40,676 nucleotides of DNA, from IMG/VR virus record IMGVR_UViG_3300025030_001713, positions 1-40,676 of that record; one strand, given 5' to 3'. The DNA is from a virus. Positions 6,753 through 35,374 of the stretch are shown piece after piece (the first letter of the stretch is position 1; the number at the start of each line of letters is the position of its first letter). The position numbers were made by a program, and so were the translations under genes. The notes below the pieces were generated by a model that made no database searches, was not told the origin of the DNA, and saw only the letters and a list, made by a program, of their open reading frames with translations.

Positions 6753-6765
6753 AAGGAGGGAGAGA

Positions 6766-9411: not shown

Positions 9412-9432
9412 AAAAGAAAGGGGAAATAAAAG

Positions 9433-9600
9433 ATGTTAACCGTTCAACTTACTGAAATGCAAAGAAAAAATCTGTTAGTTTTTCTTGGCCGGATACAGCT
9501 ATCTGGCTTAGAGGCAAGAGCATTTATGGAGATAGTCCAAGCTGTTGAAAATGCTGATGCTAAGCCAACAAAAGAAGAATCAAGGAGTGGTGATAGTTAA
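9433..9600 (+). CDS. Small phage protein (55 aa), unknown
   Basis: An ATG lies about nine bases after an AAAGGGG ribosome site and opens a 55-residue frame directly after the tail tip gene. The product begins MLTVQLTEMQRKNLLVFL and is predicted to be mostly one long amphipathic helix with a charged C-terminus. Its last 21 bases overlap the end of the convergent minus-strand gene. No family is recognised. Small helical proteins at this position are common in Clostridia prophages. Confidence 0.65.
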   Translation: MLTVQLTEMQRKNLLVFLGRIQLSGLEARAFMEIVQAVENADAKPTKEESRSGDS

Positions 9601-10266
9601 GGTCTTATTTTCTTGGTCAATTTGGTATCCAGTAATGATGCCTTTGCTTTGAAGTTCGGAGAGTAATATAAAATGGCGATGAGCAACGTAAATAACAGGA
9701 TCTCCGAGAACATAATTTACTTCATTAGAAGAATCAAAGTCGATTAATTTTTGCGTTCCCGCCGGATCGGAATAAAGAATTATTTGCTTGGTATTTCGAT
9801 CCCATGCGACTGAAATACCAAGACTATACTCAATTCCTAGCAAAGCAACGTAGACAATATTTGGAGAAGCCATAATAACTTCTCCTTCTTGAAGTAGTTT
9901 ATTTATGGTGGGATTTTCTATTTGGTAATATTGAATCTCCGGCTGCGGCACACTATCGCCTCCCATTGGCACAGATTTACTTGTCTCAATTATACCAGAA
10001 CTTGGGGTCTCTGCAGCAACAGGTTGAACTACCTGTTGAGTAATAGTTACCGATTGGGTTGCATCATCCCACTTCACTTCAGCACCCAGGGCCTCCGACA
10101 CAACCCGGATAGGCACGAATACCCGGTCCCGGATCATCTGTGGTGCCGGGTCGGAGGGGACTTCCTTCCCATTTACGATCAGGCGGATGGCCTGGGGCGC
10201 GGCAACAGCAGTAGCGGCGGTGGCCAGGATGAGGCCAACAACAAGACCGGCGAGAAACTTTTTCAA
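9580..10266 (-). CDS. Secreted copper-amine-oxidase-N (stalk) domain protein
   Basis: The start chosen is a TTG at 10266, nine bases after AAAGGAG; longer frames start before this ribosome site. The 228-residue product opens with KKF, a hydrophobic core (LAGLVVGLILATAATAVAA) and an apparent AAP signal cleavage site. Residues about 26-75 form a stalk domain: IRLIVNGKEV, then VPIRVVSEALGA and VKWDDATQSVTI. The remaining 150 residues are unassigned and end in a beta-rich region. It is the only gene read leftwards between tail and lysis genes, so it probably has its own promoter and may be expressed in the lysogen as a cell-surface (conversion) protein. Stalk domains are common in host surface proteins of Clostridia. 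Confidence 0.85.
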   Translation of the reverse strand: MKKFLAGLVVGLILATAATAVAAPQAIRLIVNGKEVPSDPAPQMIRDRVFVPIRVVSEALGAEVKWDDATQSVTITQQVVQPVAAETPSSGIIETSKSVPMGGDSVPQPEIQYYQIENPTINKLLQEGEVIMASPNIVYVALLGIEYSLGISVAWDRNTKQIILYSDPAGTQKLIDFDSSNEVNYVLGDPVIYVAHRHFILLSELQSKGIITGYQIDQENKTLTITTP

Positions 10267-10319
10267 TGCGATCACTCCTTTGGGTACCATTATATCCAAT
10301 AAGTGGGGGAGGTGAAACC

Positions 10320-10541
10320 ATGGAGAACGAAAGCGCAGGTCATAACATGGGTATTGAAAGCGACAGTCTTGAACAGCGCGTGGAGCGCTTGGAAAAGGAA
10401 GTAGTTGAACTGAGGAAGGTTAAGGAGGCCTTCTTTTTTCTTAACCAGATCACTGTGCAAAGTCGAGCTGATATAAGAGCTATCGCTGAAGAACTATACA
10501 CACTGGCAAATCAGACCACCCGGCAATACGGAAAAATTTAA
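10320..10541 (+). CDS. Coiled-coil phage protein (73 aa) ahead of the holin
   Basis: The start is the ATG seven bases after GGGGGAGG; an upstream in-frame ATG lies before this site and is not used. The 73-residue product has a heptad-like helix LEQRVERLEKEVVELRKV followed by a second helix. It resembles the soluble part of XhlA-like proteins, which precede holins in Bacillus phages, but it lacks the C-terminal membrane segment. It may help position the lysis proteins or be a small tail component. The XhlA link is inference from shape and gene order. Confidence 0.65.
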   Translation: MENESAGHNMGIESDSLEQRVERLEKEVVELRKVKEAFFFLNQITVQSRADIRAIAEELYTLANQTTRQYGKI

Positions 10542-10600
10542 TTCATAGTATCAAGCCTCCCGGCTCCTAACCGGGTAATAAGAGGAAGGGGGATTGGGAA

Positions 10601-11128
10601 TTGATTGGAGTTATCGATGCCTTTGTCATGGTGATTGACCGGGTTATGAAAGATAGGATTGCTCAAATAGGCGGGGTTCTACTCGGCATACTAACCTATC
10701 TGGTAGAGCCTAACGCAGCGTTCTACGCCTTGTGGATTGCCGTGGTCCTGGATCTGATCAGCAGGATAATTGTCGAAGCGGCTCACGCCGGTGGGTACAT
10801 AAAAGCAACCAAGGAACGAAAAATCTGCAGCGATAAAATGTTTGTCGGGTCCGCGATCAAAATCGTGGCCTATTTTTTTATGACGGTCATCGTTTACCAG
10901 AGCAAACATTTGGTCGCATATGAACAGGTGCCACTTTTGCTAAGCACCGTCGTATACGGGATTTTGTTTTGGGTTGAGTTCCATTCAATAACTGAAAATT
11001 TTGTAGAAGCTGGGGTAGAGGAGCTCCGGCCATTGTTATGGCGGATCAAGCGGGAGCAAAAGCGTTTTGAGGACGGAGAGGAACCGCCGGCATCGGTAAC
11101 AGGTGGGAGGGATGGCCGTGGAGATTAG
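10601..11128 (+). CDS. Phage holin-like membrane protein
   Basis: The TTG start follows GAGGAAGGGGG by about nine bases. The 175-residue protein has three or four hydrophobic segments: IGGVLLGILTYLV, FYALWIAVVLDLISRIIV, AIKIVAYFFMTVIVY and LLLSTVVYGILFWV, and a charged cytoplasmic tail of about 45 residues. Layout and length fit the toxin secretion/phage lysis holin family (PF05105 type), which forms membrane lesions that let the endolysin out. It overlaps the amidase start, consistent with a lysis operon. Its tail (KREQKRFEDGEEPPAS) is longer than in many holins. Confidence 0.75.
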   Translation: MIGVIDAFVMVIDRVMKDRIAQIGGVLLGILTYLVEPNAAFYALWIAVVLDLISRIIVEAAHAGGYIKATKERKICSDKMFVGSAIKIVAYFFMTVIVYQSKHLVAYEQVPLLLSTVVYGILFWVEFHSITENFVEAGVEELRPLLWRIKREQKRFEDGEEPPASVTGGRDGRGD

Positions 11129-11891
11129 AAAGATGCTACTGACTTCCGGTCAGGGTGGTAGGCCTGGAAAGAAGGTCACCCCCAAGGGACTGGTTATACA
11201 CTGGACGGCTAACGAAAACCCTAAGGCTGATGCAGTAGCCAATCGGAACTACTTCGAAAACCACCCTCAGAACAAGGTGAGTGCTCATTACATTGTTGAT
11301 GACTGCCAGGTTGTGCAGTGCTTACCCGAGGATGAGCTTGGCTATCACGTGGGCGCCAAGCAATATAAGCCAGCTGCCCTAGAACGGTTATCATCCTATC
11401 CCAATGACTGCACCATTGGGATAGAGATTTGCGTCAACCGGGACGGCAATTTTAGCAAGACCTATCAGAATTCTGTTGCGCTGGCAGCTGACATCCTTCA
11501 TCGCCGTGGGTGGGGAGCGGATCGCCTCTGGCGCCACTTCGATATTACCGGGAAAGATTGCCCCCGGTTTTTTGTTGATAATGGTACGGCCATTTTTTAT
11601 GGTTTTAGTTCTGCTTCAGCCGGCTGGGACCGGTTCAAGACGGACGTAGTAATTGCTTTGGTGAACCTTCAACAGGGAAACAATCGGGTTGAGACCGCGA
11701 AGGAGGTTGAAGTGGTGGCGGAAGGGATACGGCTCATCATCAAGGGCAAGGAAATGAAGCCAGACGTGCCGCCGCAAGTGGTCAAGGTACCCGGCGGGGA
11801 TTGCGTGATGGTCCCACTTCGGTTCGTGTCCGAGGCATTGGGACACCGGGTTAACTGGGATGGACCAACAAAGACGGTATCTATAGATTAA
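11118..11891 (+). CDS. N-acetylmuramoyl-L-alanine amidase (endolysin) with C-terminal stalk domain
   Basis: The start is a GTG six to seven bases after GGGAGG, inside the end of the holin gene. The 257-residue product carries an Amidase_2 (T7 lysozyme-like) domain over about residues 20-165: zinc-ligand region VIHWTAN (His28), SAHYIVDD, and the closing motif RHFDITGKDCPR with a further His and Cys. It would cleave the amide bond between MurNAc and L-Ala in peptidoglycan. The C-terminal 55 residues are a copper-amine-oxidase-N domain (IRLIIKGKEM, VPLRFVSEALG, VNWDGPTKTVSI), probably the wall-binding part. There is no signal peptide, so release through the holin fits. Confidence 0.92.
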   Translation: MEIRKMLLTSGQGGRPGKKVTPKGLVIHWTANENPKADAVANRNYFENHPQNKVSAHYIVDDCQVVQCLPEDELGYHVGAKQYKPAALERLSSYPNDCTIGIEICVNRDGNFSKTYQNSVALAADILHRRGWGADRLWRHFDITGKDCPRFFVDNGTAIFYGFSSASAGWDRFKTDVVIALVNLQQGNNRVETAKEVEVVAEGIRLIIKGKEMKPDVPPQVVKVPGGDCVMVPLRFVSEALGHRVNWDGPTKTVSID

Positions 11892-11906
11892 AGGGAGGGA
11901 ATAGCA

Positions 11907-12266
11907 GTGGAAGAGTTAGTCATGAAGTTGACCTATGATGTCCTGTCAATCCTGATCCTGGTGGCCGTTACCCTGGTCATTGCTTGGCTGAAGAAAAAGC
12001 TGGGTGTCGAGGGGATGCGCCGGGTGCAGGAGGAGTTGTCAGCGAAACAGGAACTGGCCCTTTTGGCTGTGAAGGCGGTTGAGCAATTGTGGACTGGGGT
12101 CCTGCTGGGCGAAGAGAAGGCAGATAAGGCCAGCGAGATCATATCGGGGCAGGCAGCTAGGGCAGGGTTGAAGATAGCGCCCGAGGAAATCAAGACCCTT
12201 GTTGAATGGGCCGTCCGGACACTGAAAGATGAGTTCGGGGAATCTTGGGCGAAGGCTACTGCATGA
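11907..12266 (+). CDS. LLH-type phage holin
   Basis: The GTG start follows AAGGGAGGG. The 119-residue product has one N-terminal membrane segment (VLSILILVAVTLVIAWL), then KKKLG and a long helical region (EELSAKQELALLAVKAVEQ, ISGQAARAGLKIAPEEIK). This is the arrangement of the Lactobacillus phage LL-H holin family (PF09682). With the gene at 10601 there are two holin-like proteins around the endolysin, as is common in Firmicutes phages, where one may act as antiholin. The stop overlaps the next start in ATGA. Confidence 0.85.
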   Translation: MEELVMKLTYDVLSILILVAVTLVIAWLKKKLGVEGMRRVQEELSAKQELALLAVKAVEQLWTGVLLGEEKADKASEIISGQAARAGLKIAPEEIKTLVEWAVRTLKDEFGESWAKATA

Positions 12267-13157: not shown

Positions 13158-14306
13158 ATGAGGACAGGTCACCCTATAGGGATAGACCTGTTTTGTGGCG
13201 CCGGAGGCATGTCACTTGGTTTTGAACAAGCTGGTTTTGAGATTGTGGCTGCAGTTGATGCAAGTCCTATACATATTGATACACACAAAAGGAACTTTCC
13301 AAAATGTAAAACAATTTGTACAGATATTTCAAGTTTAAACGGAGAGAAGCTCCTAAATATAGCAGACTTAAAACAAAAGCAATTAGATGTACTTTTCGGT
13401 GGTCCACCTTGCCAAGGCTTCTCGATGGCGGGTAAGAGACGTTCGAATGATCCAAGAAGTTTATTATTCTTAGAATTTTCACGTCTGATTAAAGAAACAA
13501 TGCCACTATATTTCGTCGTTGAAAACGTTGCTGGCTTAATTGCCGGAAAAACCAAAACAATATTAGAACAATTTATTAATGAGGTTATAAAGGCCGGATA
13601 TATTATCTTAGAACCGGTTCGTATACTTGACGCCTCTGAATTTGGTGTGCCTCAGCAACGCAAACGCCTATTTATTATTGGTTGTCTTAATGGTCTTCAA
13701 CTTCCTGACTATCCATCGATAAATGTGGGCGAGAGCTCTACAACCGTGTGGGATGCCATTGGTGATTTGCCTAATGTTGACGACTATCATTACCTTCTTA
13801 CATCGGATGTCTATATGGGAGAACTAGGTCTATGGAGTGAATATTCAAAAACACTTCGTGGATTAGATGAAATGATGGCTAGTTCTAATAAATTCCGAGA
13901 AAAAAGGAATGGTTTAAGTGGATGTTCTCGTGTCGTACACTCTCCCGAAGTAATCAAACGGTTCTCTGAAACAATACCCGGGACATGCGAACCTATTAGT
14001 AGGTTTTATAGACTAGCAAGTCAAGGAGTTTCGAATACTATCCGTGCAGGTACAGATCGAACACATGGTGGTTTTACTGCACCTAGACCGATTCATCCTA
14101 TATATCCACGTTGTATTACAGTAAGGGAGGCGGCAAGACTTCAATCTTTCCCTGACTGGTTCACCTTTCATCCTACAAAATGGCATGGTTTTCGTGAGGT
14201 TGGAAATTCTGTTCCTCCTTTATTAGCACAAACGGTTGCCGCGGAAGTACTAAAATGTATATATAGGTTGAGGGGTGAAACATTAATTAAGAAAGAGGTT
14301 ATTTAG
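13158..14306 (+). CDS. DNA (cytosine-5)-methyltransferase
   Basis: The 382-residue product contains the ordered motifs of C5-cytosine methyltransferases: motif I (GIDLFCGAGGMSLGF, residues 8-22), motif IV with the catalytic Cys85 (GGPPCQGFSM), motif VI (ENV at 122-124), motif VIII (QQRKR at 166-170), and motifs IX-X near the end (VREAARLQSFP, GNSVPPLLA). All key residues are present, so it should be active, moving methyl from SAM to cytosine in duplex DNA. The target-recognition region is about residues 190-320; its sequence specificity cannot be read. It is the first gene of a tight three-gene operon (stop directly followed by the next ATG). Codon use is much more AT-rich than the phage core, a sign of transfer. 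Confidence 0.95.
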   Translation: MRTGHPIGIDLFCGAGGMSLGFEQAGFEIVAAVDASPIHIDTHKRNFPKCKTICTDISSLNGEKLLNIADLKQKQLDVLFGGPPCQGFSMAGKRRSNDPRSLLFLEFSRLIKETMPLYFVVENVAGLIAGKTKTILEQFINEVIKAGYIILEPVRILDASEFGVPQQRKRLFIIGCLNGLQLPDYPSINVGESSTTVWDAIGDLPNVDDYHYLLTSDVYMGELGLWSEYSKTLRGLDEMMASSNKFREKRNGLSGCSRVVHSPEVIKRFSETIPGTCEPISRFYRLASQGVSNTIRAGTDRTHGGFTAPRPIHPIYPRCITVREAARLQSFPDWFTFHPTKWHGFREVGNSVPPLLAQTVAAEVLKCIYRLRGETLIKKEVI

Positions 14307-15632
14307 ATGAGGGATGAATCTCTTAGAATTGACGCTTCCCCAACTAAAGATTTTTTTATATACATGCTCACGAAGGATATCGATCTAATTCGTGCAATAG
14401 CAGATCTTGTTGATAATAGTGTTGACGGTGCGAGGAGAATTAAGGGAAATACGGAGTATGAAGGTTTAGTTATTCGCTTAGAAGTACTAGCTACCCATTT
14501 TAAAATACACGATAACTGTGGCGGAATTCCTATTGAAATAGCACGCAAGTACGCTTTCCGTTTTGGAAGAGTCAAAGGAATGCCCGAAACGCCTTATTCT
14601 ATCGGTCAGTTTGGCGTTGGCATGAAAAGAGCTTTATTTAAATTAGGTAACATATTTAATATTGAATCTGTGACCTCAACATCTAAATTTAGTGTTGAAG
14701 GAAACGTTCAGGAATGGGCAAAAGATAAAGATAATTGGGATTTTATTTTTAGCGAATTAAACGAGAGTTTTCAACCTATGAATGATCAAGTTTATACATC
14801 TATAATAGTTACTGAACTTCATACGTCTGTATCAGAGGAATTCTCTTTAGAAAACTTCCAAAAACGTCTTTCTTTAGAATTGGAAGCGGCGCATCAGTAT
14901 AGTTTAAACGAAGGTCTTATTATTACTCTTAATGGAATACCACTTACCTTTCGTCCAGCTCAGCTACTCAGTTCAGATGAGCTTAAGCCAGCATTTGTGG
15001 AAAAGGAGATTATTATATCTGGCAAAGTTAAGATTAGTATTAAAATATACGTGGGTCTAGCAAAGTCTGATCCCCAAAATGCAGGGTGGCATGTTTTCTG
15101 TAATGGCAGATTAATTTTAGAGGCAGATAGATCACGTACTACTGGTTGGGGTGATGGAAGTATACCTCAGTTTCATAATCAATTCGCTAGATTTCGAGGC
15201 TATACTTTTTTCGATTCTGATGATGCTAGTTTATTACCTTGGACAACTACAAAAAGTTCTGTAGATACTGGTTCTCCGGTTTTTAGGGAAGTTCGTTTAG
15301 ATATGTTAACATTAATGCGCCCCGTTATTGATTTTTTAAACCAGATGGAGAGAGAGAGAAAGGGTCGCGATGATAATACAGATCCAACGCCCTTGGAACT
15401 TATTATAAACGAAGCTAAATCCGTAAATCTTTCAGATGTTGGACAAACGCGTGCTTTTATAGCTCCCAAACTAAAAACTGAATCAACTCCAAAAATAAGA
15501 ATGAATAAAATTCAATATAGTAAACCCACAGAAGAAATCGATCGCGTTAAATCTGTCCTGAAGGTTTCTTCGCTTAAAGAAGTAGGTGAAGAAACTTTTG
15601 ATTATTTCTTGAGGATGGAGTGCGAAGATTAA
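14307..15632 (+). CDS. GHKL (MORC/MutL-like) ATPase of the methyltransferase island
   Basis: The 441-residue protein begins directly after the methyltransferase stop. Residues about 20-130 form a HATPase_c_3 domain: N box IADLVDNSVDGA (31-42), HDNCGGIP (69-75) and the lid/G-box IGQFGVGMKRALFKLG (99-114). The usual general-base Glu before the N box is Asp33 here. Residues about 230-350 hold a transducer-like part with FCNGRLI and LPWTTTKSSVD, whose Lys fits the ATP-contacting lysine of GHKL proteins. Families of this type are linked to restriction-modification systems (Iyer, Abhiman and Aravind on MORC origins). No nuclease domain is visible. ATP-driven dimer clamping on DNA is the likely mode of action (inference). 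Confidence 0.88.
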   Translation: MRDESLRIDASPTKDFFIYMLTKDIDLIRAIADLVDNSVDGARRIKGNTEYEGLVIRLEVLATHFKIHDNCGGIPIEIARKYAFRFGRVKGMPETPYSIGQFGVGMKRALFKLGNIFNIESVTSTSKFSVEGNVQEWAKDKDNWDFIFSELNESFQPMNDQVYTSIIVTELHTSVSEEFSLENFQKRLSLELEAAHQYSLNEGLIITLNGIPLTFRPAQLLSSDELKPAFVEKEIIISGKVKISIKIYVGLAKSDPQNAGWHVFCNGRLILEADRSRTTGWGDGSIPQFHNQFARFRGYTFFDSDDASLLPWTTTKSSVDTGSPVFREVRLDMLTLMRPVIDFLNQMERERKGRDDNTDPTPLELIINEAKSVNLSDVGQTRAFIAPKLKTESTPKIRMNKIQYSKPTEEIDRVKSVLKVSSLKEVGEETFDYFLRMECED

Positions 15633-16594
15633 TGAAACCAAGTTATAAGAAAATAAATTATGCGTTAAGACCAGCAAAATGTATTGAAAGAAAAATGCTT
15701 TGTGAAGCCTTCCGATGTCTCTCTGATTTTAGGTACGTGGAATCATATAGATATATTGGATTCGGTTCTGTATATTTTTCGGATTTTACTCTTTTTCATA
15801 AGGAACTCAATTTATGTCAAATGAAAAGTATCGAACATAATGAAGATGATAAAGATAGATGTGAATTCAACCGACCATTCCAATGTATTGACCTAATTAT
15901 TGGAGAATCCACAGATATATTATCTCAAATTGATTGGAATGAAATATGCACAATAGCTTGGTTAGATTATGATGATAAATTAACAAATCAGGTCTTAGCA
16001 GATATAAAGTTAGTATGTTCTCACTGTTCACCAGGAAGTATCATAGTGATAACGGTTAATGCACAACCTATTGCATATGAAAAAGATGGAGAAGACCGCG
16101 AAGCTAGAATGAATCAATTAATAAAACAAATTGGAGAGGAGAAAATTCCAACTTATATAAGGGAAAATGACTTGATAGGTTGGAAATTAGCCGGTGTTTA
16201 TAAAAGAATAATTCAAAATGAAATTGAAGAGACCCTAGTAGTTAGAAATGGAACAAGACCATCCAATCTTAAGATTCATTATCGTCAGTTATTTAATTTT
16301 AATTATGCTGACGGTGCAAAAATGTTATCTACAGGTGGTATTATTTATGATGAAGGGCAGACAGGAAAGTTGGAAGGATGCGGATTTAATAAATTATCAT
16401 TCATCAAAAATGGGGACGATCCATACTTAATAGAAGTTCCTAATTTGACCTTGCGAGAAATCCGATATCTAAACTCACAATTACCTACATCAGATCCATC
16501 TTCCTTAATAAACCACGGTTTATCATTAGATGATGTCGAGAAATTTGCCAGAATATACAGGTATTTTCCATCTTTTGCTGAAGCCGACATATAA
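15632..16594 (+). CDS. Rossmann (SAM methyltransferase-like) third protein of the island
   Basis: The ATG at 15632 overlaps the ATPase stop (TAATG); an in-frame GTG at 15620 is an alternative. The 320-residue product has a class I methyltransferase look: motif I-like YIGFGSVYFSDF, an acidic strand end SIEHN, and an IAWLDYDDKL strand at the motif IV position, followed by SIIVITVNAQP. This resembles bacterial 'O-methyltransferase-like' proteins of unknown substrate. The C-terminal 120 residues (NFNYADGAKM, FIKNGDDPYLIEVPNLTLREIRYLN) are unassigned. The strict coupling to a DNA methyltransferase and a GHKL ATPase suggests a shared defence or modification role; catalysis on DNA, protein or nothing at all (sensor) cannot be told apart from sequence. 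Confidence 0.75.
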   Translation: MKPSYKKINYALRPAKCIERKMLCEAFRCLSDFRYVESYRYIGFGSVYFSDFTLFHKELNLCQMKSIEHNEDDKDRCEFNRPFQCIDLIIGESTDILSQIDWNEICTIAWLDYDDKLTNQVLADIKLVCSHCSPGSIIVITVNAQPIAYEKDGEDREARMNQLIKQIGEEKIPTYIRENDLIGWKLAGVYKRIIQNEIEETLVVRNGTRPSNLKIHYRQLFNFNYADGAKMLSTGGIIYDEGQTGKLEGCGFNKLSFIKNGDDPYLIEVPNLTLREIRYLNSQLPTSDPSSLINHGLSLDDVEKFARIYRYFPSFAEADI

Positions 16595-16918
16595 CCAGGC
16601 AGTCTTTAAATCATGGTAATAAACCCCTGTATTGCTACCTGAGTTTTTCTTATCTTGGGCACTTATTCTAAACGAAAGTGGGTGTATATCTTTTTAAGTT
16701 GCCAATTATATTCGGTGAACAATCTTATAACCACAGCGTTATGTCTTACCAAGGCTTTTATTATTTTACGGGTATAAACCGCGGCCCGAATCACGGCCCT
16801 TTTTGCCAAATGCCCCCTAACATTGACCCACACAGGGCAACGCGAAAATCTAGCAATATCAAGGCTTTCAGGGTTTTTGTCTTGCCGTGTAAGGGCTCCA
16901 AAGAGGGGGTAAGACTAA

Positions 16919-16963
16919 CTCCAAATCCGTTGGTTGCGGGTTCAATTCCTGTCTCCCCTGCCA
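16919..16963 (+). other. att core: 3' part of a tRNA-Trp gene (no intact tRNA)
   Basis: Bases fit tRNA positions 32 to 76: loop CTCCAAA with anticodon CCA (Trp), half of the anticodon stem TCCGT, T-arm GCGGG-TTCAATT-CCTGT, acceptor strand CTCCCCT, discriminator G and CCA. The 5' half (matching acceptor AGGGGAG and stem ACGGA) is absent, so this is not a functional tRNA but the segment the phage carries to rebuild the host gene on integration. Confidence 0.85.
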
Positions 16964-16976
16964 AAAGAATGTAGAC

Positions 16977-17000
16977 GCCGCAAGCGATTGCGGCTTTTTT
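16977..17000 (+). terminator. Terminator just downstream of the att core
   Basis: GCCGCAA and TTGCGGC pair around GCGA, then a run of T. It lies 13 bases after the CCA end, where a tRNA terminator is expected, so after integration it could end transcription of the rebuilt tRNA-Trp gene. It also ends rightward transcription from the methyltransferase island before the integrase. Confidence 0.85.
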
Positions 17001-17042
17001 ATTTTCTGCCCATCACGGCCCAAAACATAAACCGCGGCCAAA

Positions 17043-18170
17043 TCACGGCCCTTGCTCATTATTTTCTGGTTCGTCTTTTTTACTGACTTGCATTATTTGC
17101 TCAAACCGGTCGGCCACCTGGCGGGGGCTGCTAGGCATAACGTGACCGTAGATATCTGACGTGATGCTGGATTGTTTATGTCGTAATCTTTCCTGGACAG
17201 TGGCTAATGGCTGGCCATCGTTTAGGAGCAAGCTAGCATGGGTGTGCCGCAGGCCGTGAAAGGTCATATCCAAACCAGCTTTAGCCGCTATCTTTCGGAA
17301 CCTAGCGGATACATTCTTAACCTCATGCGGCGTGTTGTTTTTGGTGGGGAAGACCAGGCCTTTAGCTTTCTCTGCTTTGATTGACCGTAACAATTCCACC
17401 AGCTGGGCTGATATGTCTATAGATCCAGTGCTGTGGGCCTTGGGCTCGCTGAATACCAGCTCAGACCCTTCTTCTTTTTTAACCCGCTGGACTTTTCTAC
17501 GGATCTGAATAATCCTGTTATCCAGATCCACGTCCTCCCAGTGTAGCGCTAGAACCTCTCCCAACCGCATCCCTGTGTATAAAGCCGTAAATATTAAGGA
17601 GTAATCGTTATACTCCTTAGCAACTTCAAGCAGCTTGGCGATATCTTCGAGCCTGGGCATGGCGAATTTCTGTTTTTCGATTTTGGGTTTATCCACAGCT
17701 TTAACAGGATTAAACCGGAGCATTTGCATTTTGATCGCAAACTCCAGGGCTTCATGCAGCACGGTTAGGTGGTAAGCCACTGTCCGGGGGGCCAGTTCAG
17801 CTTTGAGCTTATCAGTTTTATACTTGCTGATGCTAATGGGCTTGAGGTCCTCCAAGCGGATAGCGCCCAGGGCGGGGGTGAGGTGGACCCGGCAAATCAT
17901 TTCATAACTTTCGTATGTACGCGGCGCCAGCTGCGACCTGTGATCCTCCAGCCACTGGGTTAACAGCTCTTTAACGGTGGTTTTAATTGGCTTGACAAAC
18001 GTGCCCTGTTCTACTTCGTTAATCATCCGGAGCATTTCCGCTTTAGCTTCTGGCCTGGGGCCTTTAAAGCTTATCCGGATACGATCCCGCTCTCCGTTTT
18101 CATCGCGGCCTTTGTCTATTACTATAATCCAGCTGGACTTATAACGCTTTTCAAGATGCCCTGTTGCCAT
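17043..18170 (-). CDS. int: Site-specific tyrosine recombinase (phage integrase)
   Basis: The 375-residue product has the three-part integrase layout: an N-terminal arm-binding domain (about 1-55, beginning MATGHLEKRYKSSW), a SAM-like core-binding domain (about 60-150, TVKELLTQWLEDH) and a catalytic domain (about 170-360). Catalytic residues are visible in TGMRLGEVLALHW (Arg), FHGLRHTHAS (His, Arg), RLRHKQSSIT (His) and the nucleophile Tyr in SDIYGHV. It is transcribed towards attP and its end overlaps the right arm repeat, which assigns the attachment site to this enzyme. It should catalyse integration into a tRNA-Trp gene. The excisionase candidate is at 23180. Confidence 0.95.
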   Translation of the reverse strand: MATGHLEKRYKSSWIIVIDKGRDENGERDRIRISFKGPRPEAKAEMLRMINEVEQGTFVKPIKTTVKELLTQWLEDHRSQLAPRTYESYEMICRVHLTPALGAIRLEDLKPISISKYKTDKLKAELAPRTVAYHLTVLHEALEFAIKMQMLRFNPVKAVDKPKIEKQKFAMPRLEDIAKLLEVAKEYNDYSLIFTALYTGMRLGEVLALHWEDVDLDNRIIQIRRKVQRVKKEEGSELVFSEPKAHSTGSIDISAQLVELLRSIKAEKAKGLVFPTKNNTPHEVKNVSARFRKIAAKAGLDMTFHGLRHTHASLLLNDGQPLATVQERLRHKQSSITSDIYGHVMPSSPRQVADRFEQIMQVSKKDEPENNEQGP

Positions 18171-19849: not shown

Positions 19850-20719
19850 TCATTCCTTTCTTGTTGAGGTTTTATCTTTCCCGTTATTCCGCAGCTTTAT
19901 CTGTCCAGGGCTTCTAGGCCCCAGCGCCGCGATATTCCCCTTTCTGCCAGGTGGTACCGGTACGCCATAATGCTCAACGGCTTTTTTATGGAGGTACATG
20001 ATATCCTGCTCAGTCAGCTCATTCAGGTAAGCTATCTCAGATATCTTGACCAGGGCTTCACCCAGGCCGATCTCGTTGCGGGGTAGGAGGGCGTCAAGGT
20101 TGGCGTGGTAATCGGTCCTTTCTTCTTTGGCAATTGATTCATCTTTTTTCTGCTGTTTCTCTACCACCTCAAGTGCCCATTTCCAATGGCCGGCTACAAG
20201 CTCCTGTTGGTCCTCAGGGAGTTCAGCGATTTTACTTATGAGTTCTACAATATCAGGATGTGTACGACGAAGTAGAGAAAAAGCCTGGACTTCTTGATCG
20301 AAGCTCGGTTTTTTGGAAGGGAGGTTCTCTATTTCCCAGATCTTTTTTACTTTATCAGCTAAATTCTTATTTAAAATTGGTAAGCGTTCAGTCATATCTT
20401 TATAAACAGTGTTTTCACTGACACCAAAAACTTGAGCTGTGATTTTTGCAGTGGCGTGGCTGTCAAGGATATAAACGCAAATTTCCATCACTCGTTTTTG
20501 AATGTAGTTTGACATCGGAATATCGGAAATGCCAAGAAGATAGTCAACAGAGACATTATAATAGTTAGCCAGGCGTTGAAGGGTTGCAGGGTCGGGAGTG
20601 CGTTGATCAATTTCCCACATTGAAACAGCACCACGGCTAACTGCTAGTGCTTTTGCAAGATCTTCTTGTGTCATATTGCGCTGTTTCCTTAAATCTATAA
20701 TACGACCACCTAAAGCCAT
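19850..20719 (-). CDS. Phage repressor: XRE HTH fused to a SpoIIID-like HTH domain
   Basis: Residues 1-65 are a classic XRE helix-turn-helix (LRKQRNMTQEDLAKALAVSRGAVSMWE). Residues about 71-133 closely match SpoIIID, the mother-cell sporulation regulator: NYIQKRVMEI, an FGVSENTVYKDMTERLP helix-turn-helix and NKNLADKVKKI, at the same spacing as in Bacillus SpoIIID as I recall it. The rest (about 140-289) is helical, charged and unassigned. The gene is the first of the leftward operon, opposite the Cro-like gene, as expected of the lysogeny repressor. The ATG follows TAGGTGAG. The ImmA/IrrE peptidase downstream is its likely inactivator. Which of the two HTH units binds the phage operators is not known. 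Confidence 0.9.
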   Translation of the reverse strand: MALGGRIIDLRKQRNMTQEDLAKALAVSRGAVSMWEIDQRTPDPATLQRLANYYNVSVDYLLGISDIPMSNYIQKRVMEICVYILDSHATAKITAQVFGVSENTVYKDMTERLPILNKNLADKVKKIWEIENLPSKKPSFDQEVQAFSLLRRTHPDIVELISKIAELPEDQQELVAGHWKWALEVVEKQQKKDESIAKEERTDYHANLDALLPRNEIGLGEALVKISEIAYLNELTEQDIMYLHKKAVEHYGVPVPPGRKGNIAALGPRSPGQIKLRNNGKDKTSTRKE

Positions 20720-20863
20720 ATTTTCTCACCTACTTTATATCTTATTTTACCACATTATGTTGCATTATAAATAATAGCATCACAAAGTTGCAAAAGGTAT
20801 TGACTGCAACGTGATGTGGCATTATAATTAGCAGTATAAAGCAACTCATCGTGGCGATAGGAG
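20720..20863. promoter_or_regulatory. Lysis-lysogeny control region with divergent promoters and operators
   Basis: A consensus rightward promoter has TTGACT at 20800-20805 and TATAAT at 20823-20828 (17-base spacer). A leftward repressor promoter can be drawn with TTGCAA at 20788-20793 and the minus-strand TATAAT at 20764-20769 (18-base spacer). A direct repeat overlaps both -10 boxes: TTATGTTGCATTATAA (20755-20770) and TGATGTGGCATTATAA (20812-20827), 14 of 16 identical. An imperfect inverted repeat, CATCAC-AAA-GTTGC (20778-20791) and GCAACGTGATG (20806-20816), lies between them. These are the likely repressor/Cro operators. Confidence 0.85.
20800..20828 (+). promoter_or_regulatory. Rightward early promoter (sigma-A type)
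   Basis: TTGACT and a perfect TATAAT with a 17-base spacer. It would drive the Cro-like gene and the early/replication operon and is overlapped by a putative operator. Confidence 0.88.
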
Positions 20864-20872
20864 GTGGTCAAC

Positions 20873-21139
20873 ATTAATCGTCAACTGCTAATAACCTTAC
20901 GAAAAAAGGCAAAATTAACCCAACAAGATGTTGCTGAAAAGTTAGGTATTACACGAAGCTTCTATGGAATGATTGAGACAGGGGATAGAAACCCGACTTT
21001 AGATTTGGCTAGAAAAATAGCTGGTCTATTTAATGTAGACATTGAAGAGCTTTTTTTTAATGATGGTTGCCACGAATTGTTGCAAATTGGCCAGGTCTCC
21101 AGCCTGGATGCTACTGGAACTACTGGCAGAGGGGCTTGA
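20873..21139 (+). CDS. Cro-like XRE regulator, possible ATT start
   Basis: The product is a small XRE protein: LRKKAKLTQQDVAEKLGITRS, GMIETGDRNPTLDLARKIAGLF, NVDIEELFF. It is transcribed from the early promoter and faces the repressor, hence Cro-like. The only good ribosome site (AGGAGG, 20859-20864) would overlap the GTG at 20864, so that codon cannot serve as start; eight bases after the site lies ATT at 20873 in frame, and translation from it gives 88 residues. A rare AUU start (as in infC) is the best reading, though a sequence error is possible. The C-terminal 15 residues (SSLDATGTTGRGA) are low-complexity and may derive from rearranged flanking DNA. Confidence 0.8.
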   Translation: MNRQLLITLRKKAKLTQQDVAEKLGITRSFYGMIETGDRNPTLDLARKIAGLFNVDIEELFFNDGCHELLQIGQVSSLDATGTTGRGA

Positions 21140-21142
21140 TCG

Positions 21143-21718
21143 ATGAAAAATAATTATGAGTTTCGTGGCAACATTACCGCCATCTTCCTATCTGGAAACC
21201 TAGAAACATTAATTGACACTAAAGACCTTCCGTTAGTACAGCAATTTCCAAATACGTGGTTTAAACATTCCCATTGCTGTAAGTGCTCGTGGAGAGTAAT
21301 TGGCTACTTTTATGAAAACCGTAGAAAAAAGCGTCAGATTTTTTTGCATCGCTATATCATGAACGCCCCAATTGGATACGAGGTTGACCACATAGATCAC
21401 GATAGTTTAAATAATTGCCGCTCTAACTTAAGAGCTGTAACCAAATCTATTAATCAATTAAACCGTATCGGCGCCCAGCGCAATAACAAATCCAGTGGGT
21501 TACGCGGTGTAAGTTACCGAAAAGACGCTAACGTATGGGAGGGCTATTTTTGGATTAACAACAAAAGGTATCATGTCGGTTTTTTTAAGACTAAAGAAAA
21601 AGCCTATGTTACAACAACAGCTAAAAGAAATTTATGTCTTATTTCAATGGGCGTTTCAGTAGCAGACCTCCTGGATGACACCCAGGCGGCTAGGCTGGAT
21701 GTGACAGGTACGGGGTAG
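21143..21718 (+). CDS. Homing HNH endonuclease with AP2-like DNA-binding domain
   Basis: The 191-residue product has an HNH core (LHRYIMNAPIGYEVDHIDHDSLNN, read as LHRYIMNAPIG then EVDHIDHDSLNN) with the first His at the DHIDH motif and the Asn in SLNNCRSNLR, followed by an AP2/ERF-like domain (GLRGVSYRKDANVWEG, GFFKTKEKAY). This is the standard free-standing homing endonuclease of phages. The last 15 residues (DDTQAARLDVTGTG) are encoded in a 34-base repeat that recurs at 22509, so the end of the gene was probably reshaped when the element arrived. It is inserted right after the Cro-like gene. Confidence 0.88.
   Translation: MKNNYEFRGNITAIFLSGNLETLIDTKDLPLVQQFPNTWFKHSHCCKCSWRVIGYFYENRRKKRQIFLHRYIMNAPIGYEVDHIDHDSLNNCRSNLRAVTKSINQLNRIGAQRNNKSSGLRGVSYRKDANVWEGYFWINNKRYHVGFFKTKEKAYVTTTAKRNLCLISMGVSVADLLDDTQAARLDVTGTG
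21678..21711 (+). repeat. Direct repeat, copy 1 (34 bp)
   Basis: This copy lies in the last codons of the HNH gene. It begins ACACCCAGGCGGCT and continues GGCTGGATGTGACAGG. It matches the copy at 22509-22542 at 32 of 34 bases. The interval between the copies, about 830 bases, holds two small plus-strand genes and one minus-strand gene. Confidence 0.9.
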
Positions 21719-21737
21719 AGGGGGGAGGTGAGAAGGG

Positions 21738-21884
21738 ATGGAGAAGCTTGAGGTTATCAAGAAGCAGATTGAACTGCTGGGGAAAGTAAACGAGGAACTG
21801 ATGGTGCTACCTATGAACCCAGAAGTGGCAGCTCAGATAAGAGAAAATGTACTAGCAATTAACCAATTGTCACGATTTCTATAG
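21738..21884 (+). CDS. Small helical early protein (48 aa)
   Basis: An ATG just after GGGGGAGGTGAGAAGGG opens a 48-residue frame whose product is one or two amphipathic helices (KLEVIKKQIELLGKVNEEL). The stop lies within the left copy of a 12-base inverted repeat. No family is recognised. The strong ribosome site supports translation. Confidence 0.65.
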   Translation: MEKLEVIKKQIELLGKVNEELMVLPMNPEVAAQIRENVLAINQLSRFL

Positions 21885-22130
21885 GCGTCCATGGCGCTAC
21901 GAATTATTCTACGGGTGTTTTATAAGCTTTCCTAATCGCCCTTAAAATCTTTTCGTAGAACCCTGCCACGGTTTCCTGATCCGAAAGAATTTTTTGGGCT
22001 TTAAGAGAGGCGGAAGAAGTATCTCCGCCATTGGCAGAACCGATAGCACTTAACCAAGCAACCATAATATCACCGGCAAGTTCACCAAAATCTTTACCCA
22101 TTTTTCCTCCTAACTACCTGGACGCCTATA
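21880..22130. repeat. Perfect 12-bp inverted repeats bracketing a minus-strand gene
   Basis: TATAGGCGTCCA at 21880-21891 and TGGACGCCTATA at 22119-22130 are exact reverse complements. They bracket only the minus-strand gene 21904-22101. This could be a small cassette end or a stem that isolates the reversed gene; no transposase is present. Confidence 0.6.
21904..22101 (-). CDS. Small minus-strand protein (65 aa)
   Basis: The ATG lies five bases after a strong TAGGAGG site, so the gene is very likely translated although it opposes the early operon. The product (MGKDFGELAGDIMVAWLSA, then ILRAIRKAYKTPVE) is predicted helical with no signal or membrane segment. No family is recognised. Its reversed direction and flanking inverted repeats suggest separate acquisition. 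Confidence 0.7.
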   Translation of the reverse strand: MGKDFGELAGDIMVAWLSAIGSANGGDTSSASLKAQKILSDQETVAGFYEKILRAIRKAYKTPVE

Positions 22131-22194
22131 AGCAAACTCTACCAGAAATGAGGTTCGCTGGATAGAACCGAGCACTAGGAGTTTGAGAAAATCC

Positions 22195-22497
22195 ATGGAT
22201 AAACGTAAAAATAAGTGTTTCCATATCGTGCCTGTATATTACGGGGACCGCCCCGTCAGTACACGGGGGAAGCCAAATGAAAGTAAGGATTATTATTTCA
22301 GGTGCTATGCTTCCGCTGTAAAAGGTGGCCCCGACTATCGACAAGCTAATACAATAAACGATTTGTGCGATGGATGTAAAAAACATTATCACATCAAACC
22401 CTTGACTAAAGAAGAAATAAAAGAAAAGTACTATTCTGGAAAGTCGCAAGAAGTTTTAGTAGTTAGTTCCACTGGCTGGCATTTTAAGACTCTGTAG
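22195..22497 (+). CDS. Cys-rich small protein (100 aa), possible zinc binder
   Basis: The start chosen is ATG 22195; a TTG at 22183 is too close to the AGGAG site at 22177-22181, while the ATG is 13 bases from it, so the start is not settled. The product has single Cys residues near the N-terminus (KNKCFHIVPVYYG, YFRCYASA) and a DLCDGCKKHYHI motif, which could form a zinc site. No family is recognised. It lies between the inverted repeats and the second copy of the direct repeat. Confidence 0.65.
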   Translation: MDKRKNKCFHIVPVYYGDRPVSTRGKPNESKDYYFRCYASAVKGGPDYRQANTINDLCDGCKKHYHIKPLTKEEIKEKYYSGKSQEVLVVSSTGWHFKTL

Positions 22498-22508
22498 TAA
22501 TTGCTTAA

Positions 22509-22542
22509 ACACCCAGGCGGCTGGGCTGGATGTGACAGGGAC
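22509..22542 (+). repeat. Direct repeat, copy 2 (34 bp)
   Basis: Non-coding partner of the repeat at 21678-21711, differing at two bases. It follows the stop of the Cys-rich gene and precedes the ribosome site of the next gene. Confidence 0.9.
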
Positions 22543-22570
22543 AGAGTAAGGAAAGGAGGGAATAACCACG

Positions 22571-22810
22571 ATGATGAAGCACGAATTTGAAGAAAGAGTA
22601 GGCCATAGTGTTATCGATGAAGACTACGAAAAAATTGAAATAGTGTACGATTTTTACCCCAGCAACGAACCAAGCACTAAAGACGATATAGCATTCTTGT
22701 ACAGGAATTTCGGAATGAGACTTATCGACGACATGTTACCCAGGGCGCAAAAAGTAGCAGAACTTGATTTGCAAATAGATAAGGCTAAATCAGAACTTTC
22801 AAAGCTTTAA
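22571..22810 (+). CDS. Hypothetical early protein (79 aa)
   Basis: The gene starts with two successive ATG codons after GGAAAGGAGGG. The acidic 79-residue product has VYDFYPSNEPSTKDDIAFLYRNFG in the middle (two short parts VYDFYPSN and DDIAFLYRNFG) and a C-terminal helix with heptad spacing (LDLQIDKAKSELSKL). No family is recognised. It ends four bases into a convergent minus-strand gene. Confidence 0.7.
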   Translation: MMKHEFEERVGHSVIDEDYEKIEIVYDFYPSNEPSTKDDIAFLYRNFGMRLIDDMLPRAQKVAELDLQIDKAKSELSKL

Positions 22811-22983
22811 CTTTTCTTGCCAGCCACCACGTAAATAGCCAGCACGACATAAGTAAACTCAGCCCCGTCAGCCACCATTTCTATCTGGTGAACTCGAGTA
22901 GGACGCTGCTGCTGGAGCCAGGCGTTAACCTGCTCCTGCAGCTCACGGTGGTCGTTAGATGCAAAGCATTTGCACTGGTACAC
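22807..22983 (-). CDS. Small minus-strand protein resembling the Cse60 family
   Basis: The start is the GTG at 22983, nine bases after AAGGAG; the TTG at 22992 abuts the ribosome site. The 58-residue product reads YQCKCFASNDHRELQEQVNAWL, then a strand pair IEMVADGAEF and TYVVLAIYVV. This helix-plus-hairpin pattern recalls the small sporulation protein Cse60 family (PF10957), which also occurs in phages. The assignment is tentative. It faces the early operon, like the 65-residue gene at 21904. Confidence 0.65.
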   Translation of the reverse strand: MYQCKCFASNDHRELQEQVNAWLQQQRPTRVHQIEMVADGAEFTYVVLAIYVVAGKKS

Positions 22984-23016
22984 AGGAATCAACTCCTTGA
23001 AGGGAGGTGAGAAAGG

Positions 23017-23187
23017 ATGGACTATTACGGCAAGGCAAGAAAAGAGATAGTAGCAGCTATAATCCTATCAACGGTTAGAAACCACAGTTTGTCGTACAGC
23101 GACGCAAGGGTAGCACTGGAGTATGCGATGGCCAAAATTGAAACCGAAAGAGAAACGCTGGATAGAAAGGAGGCTAGGAATGCCTGA
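23017..23187 (+). CDS. Small early protein (56 aa)
   Basis: The ATG follows AGGGAGGTGAGAAAGG. The product is a single helical unit (YYGKARKEIVAAIILS, ARVALEYAMAKIETERETL). It ends a few bases inside the next gene, so the two are coupled. No family is recognised. Confidence 0.7.
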   Translation: MDYYGKARKEIVAAIILSTVRNHSLSYSDARVALEYAMAKIETERETLDRKEARNA

Positions 23188-23431
23188 GATAGCGGATTAC
23201 CCGCCGTTTTTAACACCAAAGCAGACTGCAGAGCTGCTGCAGGTTAGCGAGTACCAGGTCAGGGAGTGGGCCAGGACCAGGCAGATTGATAGCATGAAGG
23301 CTGGTAGGTTGGTGCGGATACCGAAGGCGGCAATCCTTGCGAGGATCCAGACGGCAGTTGAAGAGGAACCAGGAATGAAAGAACTGGAACGGCATTTAAG
23401 GCAGACCAAACGGAAAAAGGCAGCGAGGTGA
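23180..23431 (+). CDS. Excisionase-like helix-turn-helix protein (83 aa)
   Basis: The start is the ATG after AAAGGAGGCTAGGA; a longer frame begins before this site. The product contains a winged helix-turn-helix of the MerR/HTH_17 'excisionase family' type: FLTPKQTAELLQVSEYQVREW, then a short wing SMKAGRLVRIPKAAI (split as SMKAGRLVRIP). Such proteins bend DNA and steer tyrosine integrases to excision. With a tyrosine integrase and attP in the same phage this is the best candidate for Xis, although related proteins also act as plain regulators. Confidence 0.8.
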   Translation: MPEIADYPPFLTPKQTAELLQVSEYQVREWARTRQIDSMKAGRLVRIPKAAILARIQTAVEEEPGMKELERHLRQTKRKKAAR

Positions 23432-23437
23432 GGAGGG

Positions 23438-23671
23438 ATGACAGGGGAGGCATTACGGGCAGCGCAATTGGATTTAGCGGAGTTTGGAGTAGTTTTAGTC
23501 AGGACTGAATGGGATGCGGTTGAAATTAGGATAGCGGCCCCGGTGGTGACCAGGGCCAGACGCGCAGGAAATTTATGGGCGGTTGAGGTAGTGAGCAGCC
23601 CTACGGCGGGAACTTTGGGGGCTGCGGCGGGATTGATTAACCACATTATAAACCCAGAAAGGAGTGATTGA
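23438..23671 (+). CDS. Hypothetical early protein (77 aa)
   Basis: The ATG directly follows GAGGTGAGGAGGG. The product starts with a helical region (GEALRAAQLDLAEFG), then strands (VVLVRTEWDAVEIRIAAP) and an Ala/Gly-rich segment near the end. It resembles small alpha/beta proteins found in many Firmicutes phages. No function is known to me. Confidence 0.7.
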   Translation: MTGEALRAAQLDLAEFGVVLVRTEWDAVEIRIAAPVVTRARRAGNLWAVEVVSSPTAGTLGAAAGLINHIINPERSD

Positions 23672-23672
23672 A

Positions 23673-24170
23673 ATGCTTGAAAATGCACGAATCGAAGCCA
23701 AATTGAGCAGAGAAGCTGCAGCTGCCGAACTACACATATGCAATCGGTCACTATACGACATCGAAAAAAAAGACGCTACCGACCCAGCCATGGTGCTGCA
23801 AATGGCTAAGGTATATGGCCAACCGGACTTACCGGTAAGATATTGCTCATGCCTCTGCCCCATCGGGCAAATACATGCCCACCCGGTAGAGCAGGACCAT
23901 ATGGCCGTCATGGTCATGGGGCTGCTGAAAGAGATAAATGATATTAAGCCTTTGATTAACCGGATTGTGGCCATAGCGGCAGACGGGGAGTTAACCGAGG
24001 AAGAGAAGCCAGAGTTTGAAAACATCATGCGGGAACTGGTCCAGGTAGAAAAGCAAATCGGAGAGCTGAAGCAGTTTGCGGTCAGGAGAGGGATCGGGGT
24101 AAAAGAGATAATGCCCAGAAAAGAAAAAGCACCGGTCAGCAAACCGGCACTTAAGATAAATTTTGGTTAA
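23673..24170 (+). CDS. HTH regulatory protein of the early operon (165 aa)
   Basis: The start is the ATG after AAAGGAGTG. Residues 1-55 form an XRE-like helix-turn-helix (IEAKLSREAAAAELHICNRS, SLYDIEKKDA), followed by a Cys/His-containing linker (YCSCLCPIGQIHAHP) and two long helices (EEINDIKPLINRI-like region and EEKPEFENIMRELVQVEKQ). The His/Cys cluster could hold a metal. This type of phage regulator is often seen next to excisionase-like genes. It may control the replication genes downstream. Confidence 0.78.
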   Translation: MLENARIEAKLSREAAAAELHICNRSLYDIEKKDATDPAMVLQMAKVYGQPDLPVRYCSCLCPIGQIHAHPVEQDHMAVMVMGLLKEINDIKPLINRIVAIAADGELTEEEKPEFENIMRELVQVEKQIGELKQFAVRRGIGVKEIMPRKEKAPVSKPALKINFG

Positions 24171-24185
24171 AGGAAGTGTATCACA

Positions 24186-24617
24186 ATGGGCGCTTTATTG
24201 CAACTGCAACCGAGGATAAAACCAATATTACAGAGCAGCCCATGCAAGGTAACTACTCTGCCCACAGCAACCCCTTTGATCCGGGATACTCTCATGACTG
24301 AGATAGATATGTTTGTTAAACTTGGCGACGGTCCAGCCCGTAACCAGATGTATTCATCCCTTGTCTGGACCATGCACCTTTACGGACTGCGGAAGGTGGA
24401 TTTAGGACAGCTGATCGTAAGGCTCGAACCAAAATGGCTGTCAATCAAAGCCAAACAGATAGCGCTTTACAGTTGCTGTCCTGAGTGCGGCCAGTATTTA
24501 TATGGTTCTGACGGGCTGATAAGACTGCTGCAGTTCGAGGGCGACACCGGGTGGCATCATTACGGTTGTCGATGTGGGGCCTACTTCAAAAAGTGGGAGG
24601 GCTACGACAGTGTTTGA
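24186..24617 (+). CDS. Hypothetical protein with zinc-ribbon-like Cys pairs (143 aa)
   Basis: The ATG follows AAAGGAAGTG. The first 90 residues are helical (LSIKAKQIALY, MYSSLVWTMHLYGLRKVDLG), and the C-terminal 50 residues carry CCPECGQYLYG and later YGCRCGAYF, a possible zinc ribbon. The helical part resembles a small sigma-like or HTH domain, but not convincingly. No function is recognised. Confidence 0.68.
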   Translation: MGALLQLQPRIKPILQSSPCKVTTLPTATPLIRDTLMTEIDMFVKLGDGPARNQMYSSLVWTMHLYGLRKVDLGQLIVRLEPKWLSIKAKQIALYSCCPECGQYLYGSDGLIRLLQFEGDTGWHHYGCRCGAYFKKWEGYDSV

Positions 24618-24762
24618 CCGGCTGATGAGGGCAATGGAGCTGTGGCTAATTGCTGATACAGGCGCTAAGCTAATTGGCTGGGTCCTGTTGGTTTTTACGA
24701 TGTATATGCTTTGGCAGCTGTACCGTGGCCTAGACAGTTTCGCGGTAATGATGGGGCTTTAG
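24610..24762 (+). CDS. Single-pass membrane protein (50 aa)
   Basis: The GTG start lies nine bases after GGGAGG and overlaps the previous stop by eight bases. The product is short with one clear membrane segment (LIGWVLLVFTMYMLW) and an amphipathic N-terminal helix. No family is recognised. Small membrane proteins like this in early operons may act in host takeover or exclusion. Confidence 0.65.
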   Translation: MFDRLMRAMELWLIADTGAKLIGWVLLVFTMYMLWQLYRGLDSFAVMMGL

Positions 24763-24792
24763 TTACGGCCCCCAAAAATAAGGAGGAAGATC

Positions 24793-25217
<425 letters not shown>

Positions 25218-25221
<4 letters not shown>

Positions 25222-26423
25222 GTGGTTTAACCTTAGTGAAGTCGCCCCGCGCTCACGCTATTCTGAGCGCCTCCGGTTCTAAGCGCTGGTTGGCTTGTCC
25301 ACCCAGCGCTCAGCTGGAGCAGCGATTTCCGGAAGAGACTAGTGAGTATGCAGATGAAGGCTCTTTTGCCCACGAACTGGCGGAGTTGTATCTGAGCCTC
25401 TACCTGGAGAAAATCACGAAACGAACCTTTAACCAGCGGCTGAAAAAGTTAACTGAAAACCCCTTTTACTCTCAGGAAATGCTGGATCACGTACTAGTTT
25501 ATGTTGATTTTGCAGTTGAACGGATTAATGAGGCCCGGGCCAGGACCAGTGATGCTGTGATAATGGTAGAGCAGCGGCTGGATTTTAGCCCCTGGGTGCC
25601 AGAGGGCTTTGGTACCGGTGACACGGTGATAATCGCAGACGGGGTATTGGACGTAATAGACCTTAAGTACGGCAAAGGAGTGCCGGTTTCAGCAGAAGAC
25701 AACTCGCAGATGAAGCTGTATGGCCTGGGCGCCGTTAACCTGTTTGAATTGCTCTACGATATTCAGGCCGTGCGCGTGACCATCTGCCAGCCCCGGTTAG
25801 ATAGCATATCCGCTGATGAGATTTCAGTAGAGGAGTTAAACTGGTGGGCTGATAATGTCGTGAGACCCCTGGCTAACCTGGCCATTATGGGTCAAGGTGA
25901 ATATTCAGCAGGGGATCACTGCCGCTTCTGCCGGGCCAGGTACACCTGCCGGGCAAGGGCTGAAAACAACCTGGAGCTGGCAAAGTATGATTTTGGGCTG
26001 CCAGAACTGCTGTCGGATGCGGAGATTGCAGATATTCTGACTAAATCTGAGCAACTGCAGAAATGGGCAAAGGACGTTTACGACTTCGCCCTGGACCAGG
26101 CAGAGAACCACGGGAAGAAGTGGCAAGGGTGGAAGCTGGTCGAGGGTCGCAGCACCCGCAAGTACGCGGATGAGGAGAAAGTAGCTGAAACCTTAGTCTG
26201 GGCTAACTACCCCGTAGAAACAATTTACACACAATCACTACTGGGGATCACAGCCATGGAAAAAGTGATAGGCAAAAAGAAATTCGGTGAGCTGTTGGAG
26301 GACCTGATTATCAAGCCTCCGGGCAAGCCGACACTGGTACCCGAGAGTGACAAGCGCCCGGAAATCTCGTCAGCTGCGTCAGCAGCCGAGGATTTCAAAA
26401 ATACTATTACGGAGGAATGTTAA
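25218..26423 (+). CDS. DUF2800 protein: Cas4/AddB-like PD-(D/E)XK nuclease
   Basis: The 401-residue product fits DUF2800 (PF10926). A RecB-like nuclease core can be traced: His52 in AHELAELYLS, Asp135 in GTGDTVIIADG, Asp148-Leu-Lys150 in DVIDLKYGKG and Gln164 in DNSQMKLYG. Four cysteines, Cys27 plus Cys235, Cys238 and Cys244 (C-x2-C-x5-C), follow the pattern of the Cas4/AddB iron-sulphur cluster. It is probably a recombination exonuclease acting on DNA ends together with the SSB-like protein downstream. The ATG overlaps the previous stop by four bases. Confidence 0.88.
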
Positions 26424-27002: not shown

Positions 27003-27004
27003 TC

Positions 27005-28990: not shown

Positions 28991-29007
28991 GTAAGGAGGT
29001 AGAGGAC

Positions 29008-30039: not shown

Positions 30040-30058
30040 AGAAAGGAGACTTAAATAA

Positions 30059-30514: not shown

Positions 30515-30528
30515 GGAGGTAAAACTCA

Positions 30529-30963: not shown

Positions 30964-30978
30964 AGAGGTGGGGAGAAT

Positions 30979-32592: not shown

Positions 32593-32604
32593 GGAGATAG
32601 CGAT

Positions 32605-35344: not shown

Positions 35345-35374
35345 CGCAAGTTTTTGCAGGGAGGACAGGCAGAG

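What the first reader, a model, noticed from the sequence alone, without database searches (positions are those of the whole stretch)
16774..17053. Intact attP in tRNA-Trp shows the sequence is an excised or circular phage
The 3' half of tRNA-Trp lacks its 5' half and has phage DNA on both sides: tail/lysis genes to the left, integrase and replication genes to the right. In an integrated prophage the integrase side would abut host DNA. Complementary, non-duplicated gene sets point to one circular genome. Three arm-type repeats and a terminator placed to serve the rebuilt tRNA gene complete the site.
Basis: partly seen in the sequence, partly recalled or inferred. Interest (0 to 1): 0.6.

Follow-up and report, generated by a model that had tools for sequence, protein, structure and literature searches.

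The report
Ordinary temperate-phage attachment site in tRNA-Trp
The sequence holds an intact but ordinary docking site (attP) with which a bacterial virus would insert itself into, and repair, its host's tryptophan tRNA gene; it shows the sampled virus DNA crosses the junction found in free phage DNA, but it does not by itself prove a closed circle.

Summary
At 16918-16963 (+) lies the 3' part of a tRNA-Trp gene, from the anticodon loop through CCA, with no 5' half. It is followed by a terminator and a convergent tyrosine integrase (17043-18170, -). Five arm-type sites (AAYCRCGGCC) flank it, two on the left and three on the right, not three in all. Joining the 5' half of tRNA-Trp from five Clostridia-type genomes to this fragment rebuilds a tRNA-Trp that ARAGORN recognises; attP and attR give none. 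The seven closest chromosomal integrase relatives all abut an intact tRNA gene in the same geometry. The window has lysis and accessory genes there instead, so this is the attP configuration. A related 43-kb record carries relatives of both sides, which speaks against two unrelated phages. The contig is not a closed circle: it has no end overlap and appears to lack the head module, by comparison about 9 kb. The junction cannot separate an excised circle from concatemers, virion DNA or identical tandem prophages. It is a new example of a well-known kind of site. The most useful incidental find is a three-gene methylase/ATPase/PF20553 cassette beside attP, shared with the filamentous phage PfAC20.

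The parts
16777..16786 (+). arm-type site P1, AACCGCGGCC
16789..16798 (+). arm-type site P2, AATCACGGCC, 12 bp from P1
16918..16963 (+). attP core: 3' part of tRNA-Trp from anticodon loop to CCA; crossover presumably in the anticodon loop CTCCAAA (16919-16925)
16977..17000 (+). intrinsic terminator downstream of the tRNA fragment; would terminate the rebuilt tRNA gene
   Evidence: a hairpin follows the tRNA-Trp of L012 in the same place
17011..17020 (+). arm-type site P'1, CATCACGGCC (one mismatch)
17030..17039 (+). arm-type site P'2, AACCGCGGCC
17041..17050 (+). arm-type site P'3, AATCACGGCC, 11 bp from P'2; overlaps the 3' end of int
17043..18170 (-). tyrosine integrase, 375 aa; SAM-like N-terminal domain PF14659 and catalytic PF00589; R202, H305xxR308, H331, Y341
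13158..16594 (+). low-GC accessory cassette between lysis genes and attP: C5 cytosine methylase, HATPase_c_3 ATPase, PF20553 protein (context, not part of the site)
1221..12266 (+). tail genes (long ORF probably tape measure; tail/minor structural protein), holins and endolysin on the left of attP (context)
19850..40625 (.). repressor-like gene, replication genes and terminase small subunit on the right of attP (context)

Best explanation
This is the attP of a temperate tailed phage of an unidentified Clostridia-type Firmicute. The integrase would bind the arm sites on both sides and recombine the core with the host tRNA-Trp gene at the anticodon loop. That would place the host 5' half next to the phage 3' half and its terminator (rebuilt tRNA beside int) and leave the host's own 3' half as a displaced fragment at the far end. 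The contig runs through this site uninterrupted, so the sequenced molecules most likely were non-integrated phage DNA: an excised circle, replication concatemer or virion DNA. Shown: core, repeats, terminator, integrase domains and residues, rebuilt tRNA fold, geometry of relatives. Inferred: integrase binding, crossover position, host, physical state.
For: Joining the tRNA-Trp 5' half of L004, L005, L008, L012 or L014 to the window core gives an ARAGORN tRNA-Trp(CCA) in 5 of 5 cases; attP alone and the reciprocal attR joins give none. The relaxed core pattern finds 15 loci in genomes: 14 with a complete tRNA-Trp and one (L016) with only a 3' fragment; the nearest have 1 mismatch in 43, and L012's downstream sequence is also similar. 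Seven integrase relatives (L032, L034, L039, L064-L067; E 1e-65 to 1e-48) lie about 90-130 bp from the 3' end of an intact tRNA gene, convergent. Repeats of 8-11 nt at 11-bp spacing lie on the integrase side in L032, L034, L065, L066 and G009, like the window's P'2-P'3. L044, a broken relative (49% to Int 288-360), has the same tRNA-Trp 3' fragment and a convergent int remnant. G006 carries relatives of genes from both sides. The 274-bp span of the arm sites fits the ~250-bp attP described for tDNA islands, and anticodon-centred sites are common (2083 of 3919 islands, PMC4383910). The usual common core is 30-45 bp including the tRNA 3' half (PMC10865867).
Against: No genome with the exact 44-nt core is held, so the host is unknown and no matching attL/attR pair was found. 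The far-end attR of the relatives was not found. The window's integrase is only 35-41% identical to full-length relatives, and those use other tRNA genes. Box II reads LRH where LGH is usual (the usual form from general knowledge). Repeat evidence is weak for L064 and L067.
Confidence: 0.85

Rival explanations
1. Two identical or near-identical prophages sit in tandem in one host tRNA-Trp gene, and the window crosses their internal junction, which has the same sequence as attP.
For: The sequence of such a junction is the same; tandem arrays exist (125 entries among 3919 tDNA islands, PMC4383910).
Against: They are a small minority in that census; no host DNA or duplicated module in 40.7 kb.
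Confidence: 0.08
2. Two different phages (or a phage and another element) in tandem, so left and right belong to different lineages.
For: No record held matches both the tail genes and the replication genes at high identity; the low-GC cassette lies between them.
Against: The two sides are complementary, not duplicated. G006 joins a 71% identical holin with a 62-77% identical replication module in one 43-kb record. TerS ends the right side where the head module should follow. The same arm-type sequence lies on both sides of the core.
Confidence: 0.04
3. A chimeric metagenome assembly joined two molecules at the tRNA fragment.
For: The record is a linear virus record without end repeats and reads are not available.
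Against: Arm sites of one sequence lie on both sides of the core at plausible distances, which a random join would not produce.
Confidence: 0.02

Closest known systems
tRNA-anticodon-loop attP sites of lambda-type tyrosine integrases (tDNA islands, Islander sublocation A)
   Same: Core is the tRNA 3' part from the anticodon loop; integrase adjacent; arm-type sites on both sides; span about 250-275 bp; tRNA rebuilt on integration.
   Different: Nothing in principle; the arm sequence AAYCRCGGCC and integrase sequence are its own.
Mycobacteriophage tRNA-dependent lysogeny phages (Fionnbharth and relatives)
   Same: Tyrosine integrase, core inside a tRNA gene, putative arm sites.
   Different: Those share only about 10 bp and carry their own tRNA (PMC10865867); here 46 nt are shared and the tRNA is rebuilt, and the window has no tRNA gene.
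Paenibacillus larvae phages Tadhana, Fern, Willow
   Same: Full-length integrase relatives in annotated phage records (32%).
   Different: Distant; their attachment sites were not compared here.

Membership tests
Temperate-phage attP in a tRNA gene (3' fragment, anticodon-loop type) | Core is a tRNA 3' fragment that rebuilds the host tRNA | tested here: met
   ARAGORN tRNA-Trp in 5 of 5 simulated attL joins, none in attP or attR; true host not held
Temperate-phage attP in a tRNA gene (3' fragment, anticodon-loop type) | Tyrosine integrase gene next to the core | tested here: met
   PF00589 and PF14659, catalytic residues present
Temperate-phage attP in a tRNA gene (3' fragment, anticodon-loop type) | Direct-repeat arm sites on both sides of the core | tested here: met
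   Two left, three right; four exact against 0.33 expected in the window; binding itself not tested
Temperate-phage attP in a tRNA gene (3' fragment, anticodon-loop type) | Phage genes, not an intact tRNA and host DNA, on both sides | tested here: met
   Gene content; seven relatives in genomes show the integrated geometry instead
Temperate-phage attP in a tRNA gene (3' fragment, anticodon-loop type) | Recombination at the core by this integrase | not testable with these tools
   Needs an assay or a lysogen sequence
Complete circular phage genome | Ends overlap or reads close the circle | tested here: not met
   No end repeat of 12 bp or more and no 13-mer shared between the terminal 1500 bases; record class linear
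Complete circular phage genome | Full gene complement including terminase large subunit, portal, capsid | tested here: not met
   Right end stops at terminase small subunit and left end starts just before the tail genes; not every small ORF was scanned

The most novel reading that the evidence does not exclude
The accessory cassette next to attP (C5 methylase, paraMORC-like ATPase, PF20553 protein) may be an undescribed restriction-modification-type defence module that moves between unrelated temperate phages (a tailed Firmicute phage and a Pseudomonas filamentous phage).
Probability: 0.3. Interest if true: 0.45.

Novelty: new member of a known kind. Interest (0 to 1): 0.15.

Why it matters
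It marks the phage as temperate, names its likely insertion site, narrows the host to Firmicutes with this tRNA-Trp, and gives an integrase/attP pair that could be tested. It also shows that an attP inside a contig is evidence of non-integrated or tandem DNA, but not of a closed circle.

Tried and rejected
The exact core in viral contigs and genome contigs gave nothing. The arm-site pair in viral contigs gave nothing. A relic tRNA-Trp 5' half left of the core was rejected (shuffle fraction 0.97). The Rfam hit BjrC1505 at E 0.61 is far below its gathering score, and nothing reaches gathering in the window. Far-end attR fragments in six relatives by exact matches of 17 nt or more were not found. 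Terminal repeats were not found. Relatives of the PF20553 protein in viral contigs were not found; the ATPase was not found in eight Firmicute genomes, without a positive control.

Full report
What the window is. It is the whole of one IMG/VR virus record of 40,676 bp, classed linear. From left to right it holds tail genes, lysis genes, a low-GC accessory cassette, the tRNA fragment, a convergent integrase, repressor-like and replication genes, and at the right end a terminase small subunit with an HNH domain. No portal, capsid or large terminase was found among the proteins scanned. In relatives of the terminase small subunit, about 9 kb of large ORFs (a ~575-aa ORF, then ORFs of about 425, 223, 425 and 359 aa, which I read as terminase large subunit, portal, protease, capsid and a tail gene) follow it before the tail region (identities inferred from length and order). 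The window thus reads as one phage genome opened inside the head module and missing that part.

The site. The fragment 16918-16963 matches host tRNA-Trp from the anticodon loop to CCA except for one to four positions. No tRNA gene is called in the window. Around it are five copies of AAYCRCGGCC: 16777 and 16789 on the left; 17011 (one mismatch), 17030 and 17041 on the right. The four exact copies are the only ones in the window, with 0.33 expected. The terminator at 16977-17000 lies directly behind the tRNA fragment. In L012, the Peptococcaceae MAG nzgw226, a hairpin and T run follow the complete tRNA-Trp at the same place, with similar leading sequence (AATGTA).

Does it rebuild a tRNA? Joining the 5' half of tRNA-Trp from L004, L005, L008, L012 or L014 to the window from the anticodon onward gives a tRNA-Trp(CCA) by ARAGORN in all five cases. 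The attP itself and the reciprocal joins give none. No genome with the exact 44-nt core is held, so the host is a relative of these organisms at best.

What an integrated member looks like. The seven best integrase relatives in bacterial genomes (35-41% identity) lie about 90-130 bp from the 3' end of an intact tRNA gene (Leu, Thr, Val, Arg), always convergent. The weaker hit L036 has no tRNA nearby, and still weaker hits were not examined. Short direct repeats spaced 11 bp lie between tRNA and integrase in L032, L034, L065 and L066, and beside int in G009, matching the 11-bp spacing of the window's two inner-most int-side sites (17030, 17041). Each has its own repeat sequence. In the window the intact tRNA is replaced by the fragment alone with phage genes on its left. 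That is the attP arrangement.

One lineage or two? G006, a 43-kb virus record, has an integrase relative at one end, a replication module 62-77% identical to the window's right side, and near its other end a holin 71% identical to the window's left side. There is no duplicated module in the window. This favours one phage. No single record joins the window's tail genes (relative: G007) to its replication genes.

Excised, packaged or tandem? The sequence alone cannot decide. A free circle, a concatemer, linear virion DNA and the inside of an identical tandem pair all contain the same junction. In the Islander census tandems are a small minority (125 entries among 3919 islands; PMC4383910). I put non-integrated DNA at about 0.85. 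The word 'circular' in the finding's title is an inference: the ends share no 13-mer in their last 1500 bases.

Comparison. The site fits the textbook description: a common core of 30-45 bp with the tRNA 3' half (PMC10865867), an attP of about 250 bp (PMC4383910), and the 7-bp anticodon loop as overlap region (PMC8371274). It differs from tRNA-dependent lysogeny, where the core is about 10 bp and the phage carries its own tRNA. I file it as a new member of a known kind.

Beside the site. Genes 13158-16594 encode a C5 cytosine methylase, an HATPase_c_3 ATPase and a PF20553 protein, with GC falling to 34-39%. The Pseudomonas filamentous phage PfAC20 carries relatives of all three in one cluster in another order (ATPase 35%, PF20553 protein 27%, methylase 38%). 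HATPase_c_3 proteins of the paraMORC group are reported near restriction-modification genes (PMC8011034), so a defence or modification role is plausible but untested; PADLOC matched only the methylase among the three.

Noticed in passing
13158-16594: Three-gene low-GC cassette (C5 methylase, HATPase_c_3 ATPase, PF20553 protein) between lysis genes and attP; relatives of all three cluster in the filamentous phage PfAC20.
   Followed up: partly
L044 1146-1545: Broken relative of the element: tRNA-Trp 3' fragment without a 5' half, convergent with an 87-aa integrase remnant (49% to Int 288-360); by eye, TTTCTAATA is repeated 11 bp apart beside it.
   Followed up: partly
L016 4178-4720: Another tRNA-Trp 3' fragment in HGW-Firmicutes-12 with an integrase C-terminal remnant (30%) on the 5' side of the fragment; no intact tRNA-Trp by pattern in that MAG.
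   Followed up: partly
16851-16885: GCAATATCAAGGCTTTCAGGGTTTTTGTC left of the core resembles sequence that follows the tRNA genes in L066, L067 and L034 on the integrase side; here it is on the other side and unexplained.
   Followed up: no
11103-11891 and 18182-18754: Endolysin C-terminus and a protein next to int share a Cu_amine_oxidN1 domain (43% over 53 aa).
   Followed up: no
19850-20719: Repressor-like protein with an HTH_3 domain and a SpoIIID-like domain (PF12116, E 2e-20), a sporulation regulator domain in a phage.
   Followed up: no
L058 16482-16556: The virus record G009, with an integrase relative, carries a complete tRNA-Trp gene inside it.
   Followed up: no
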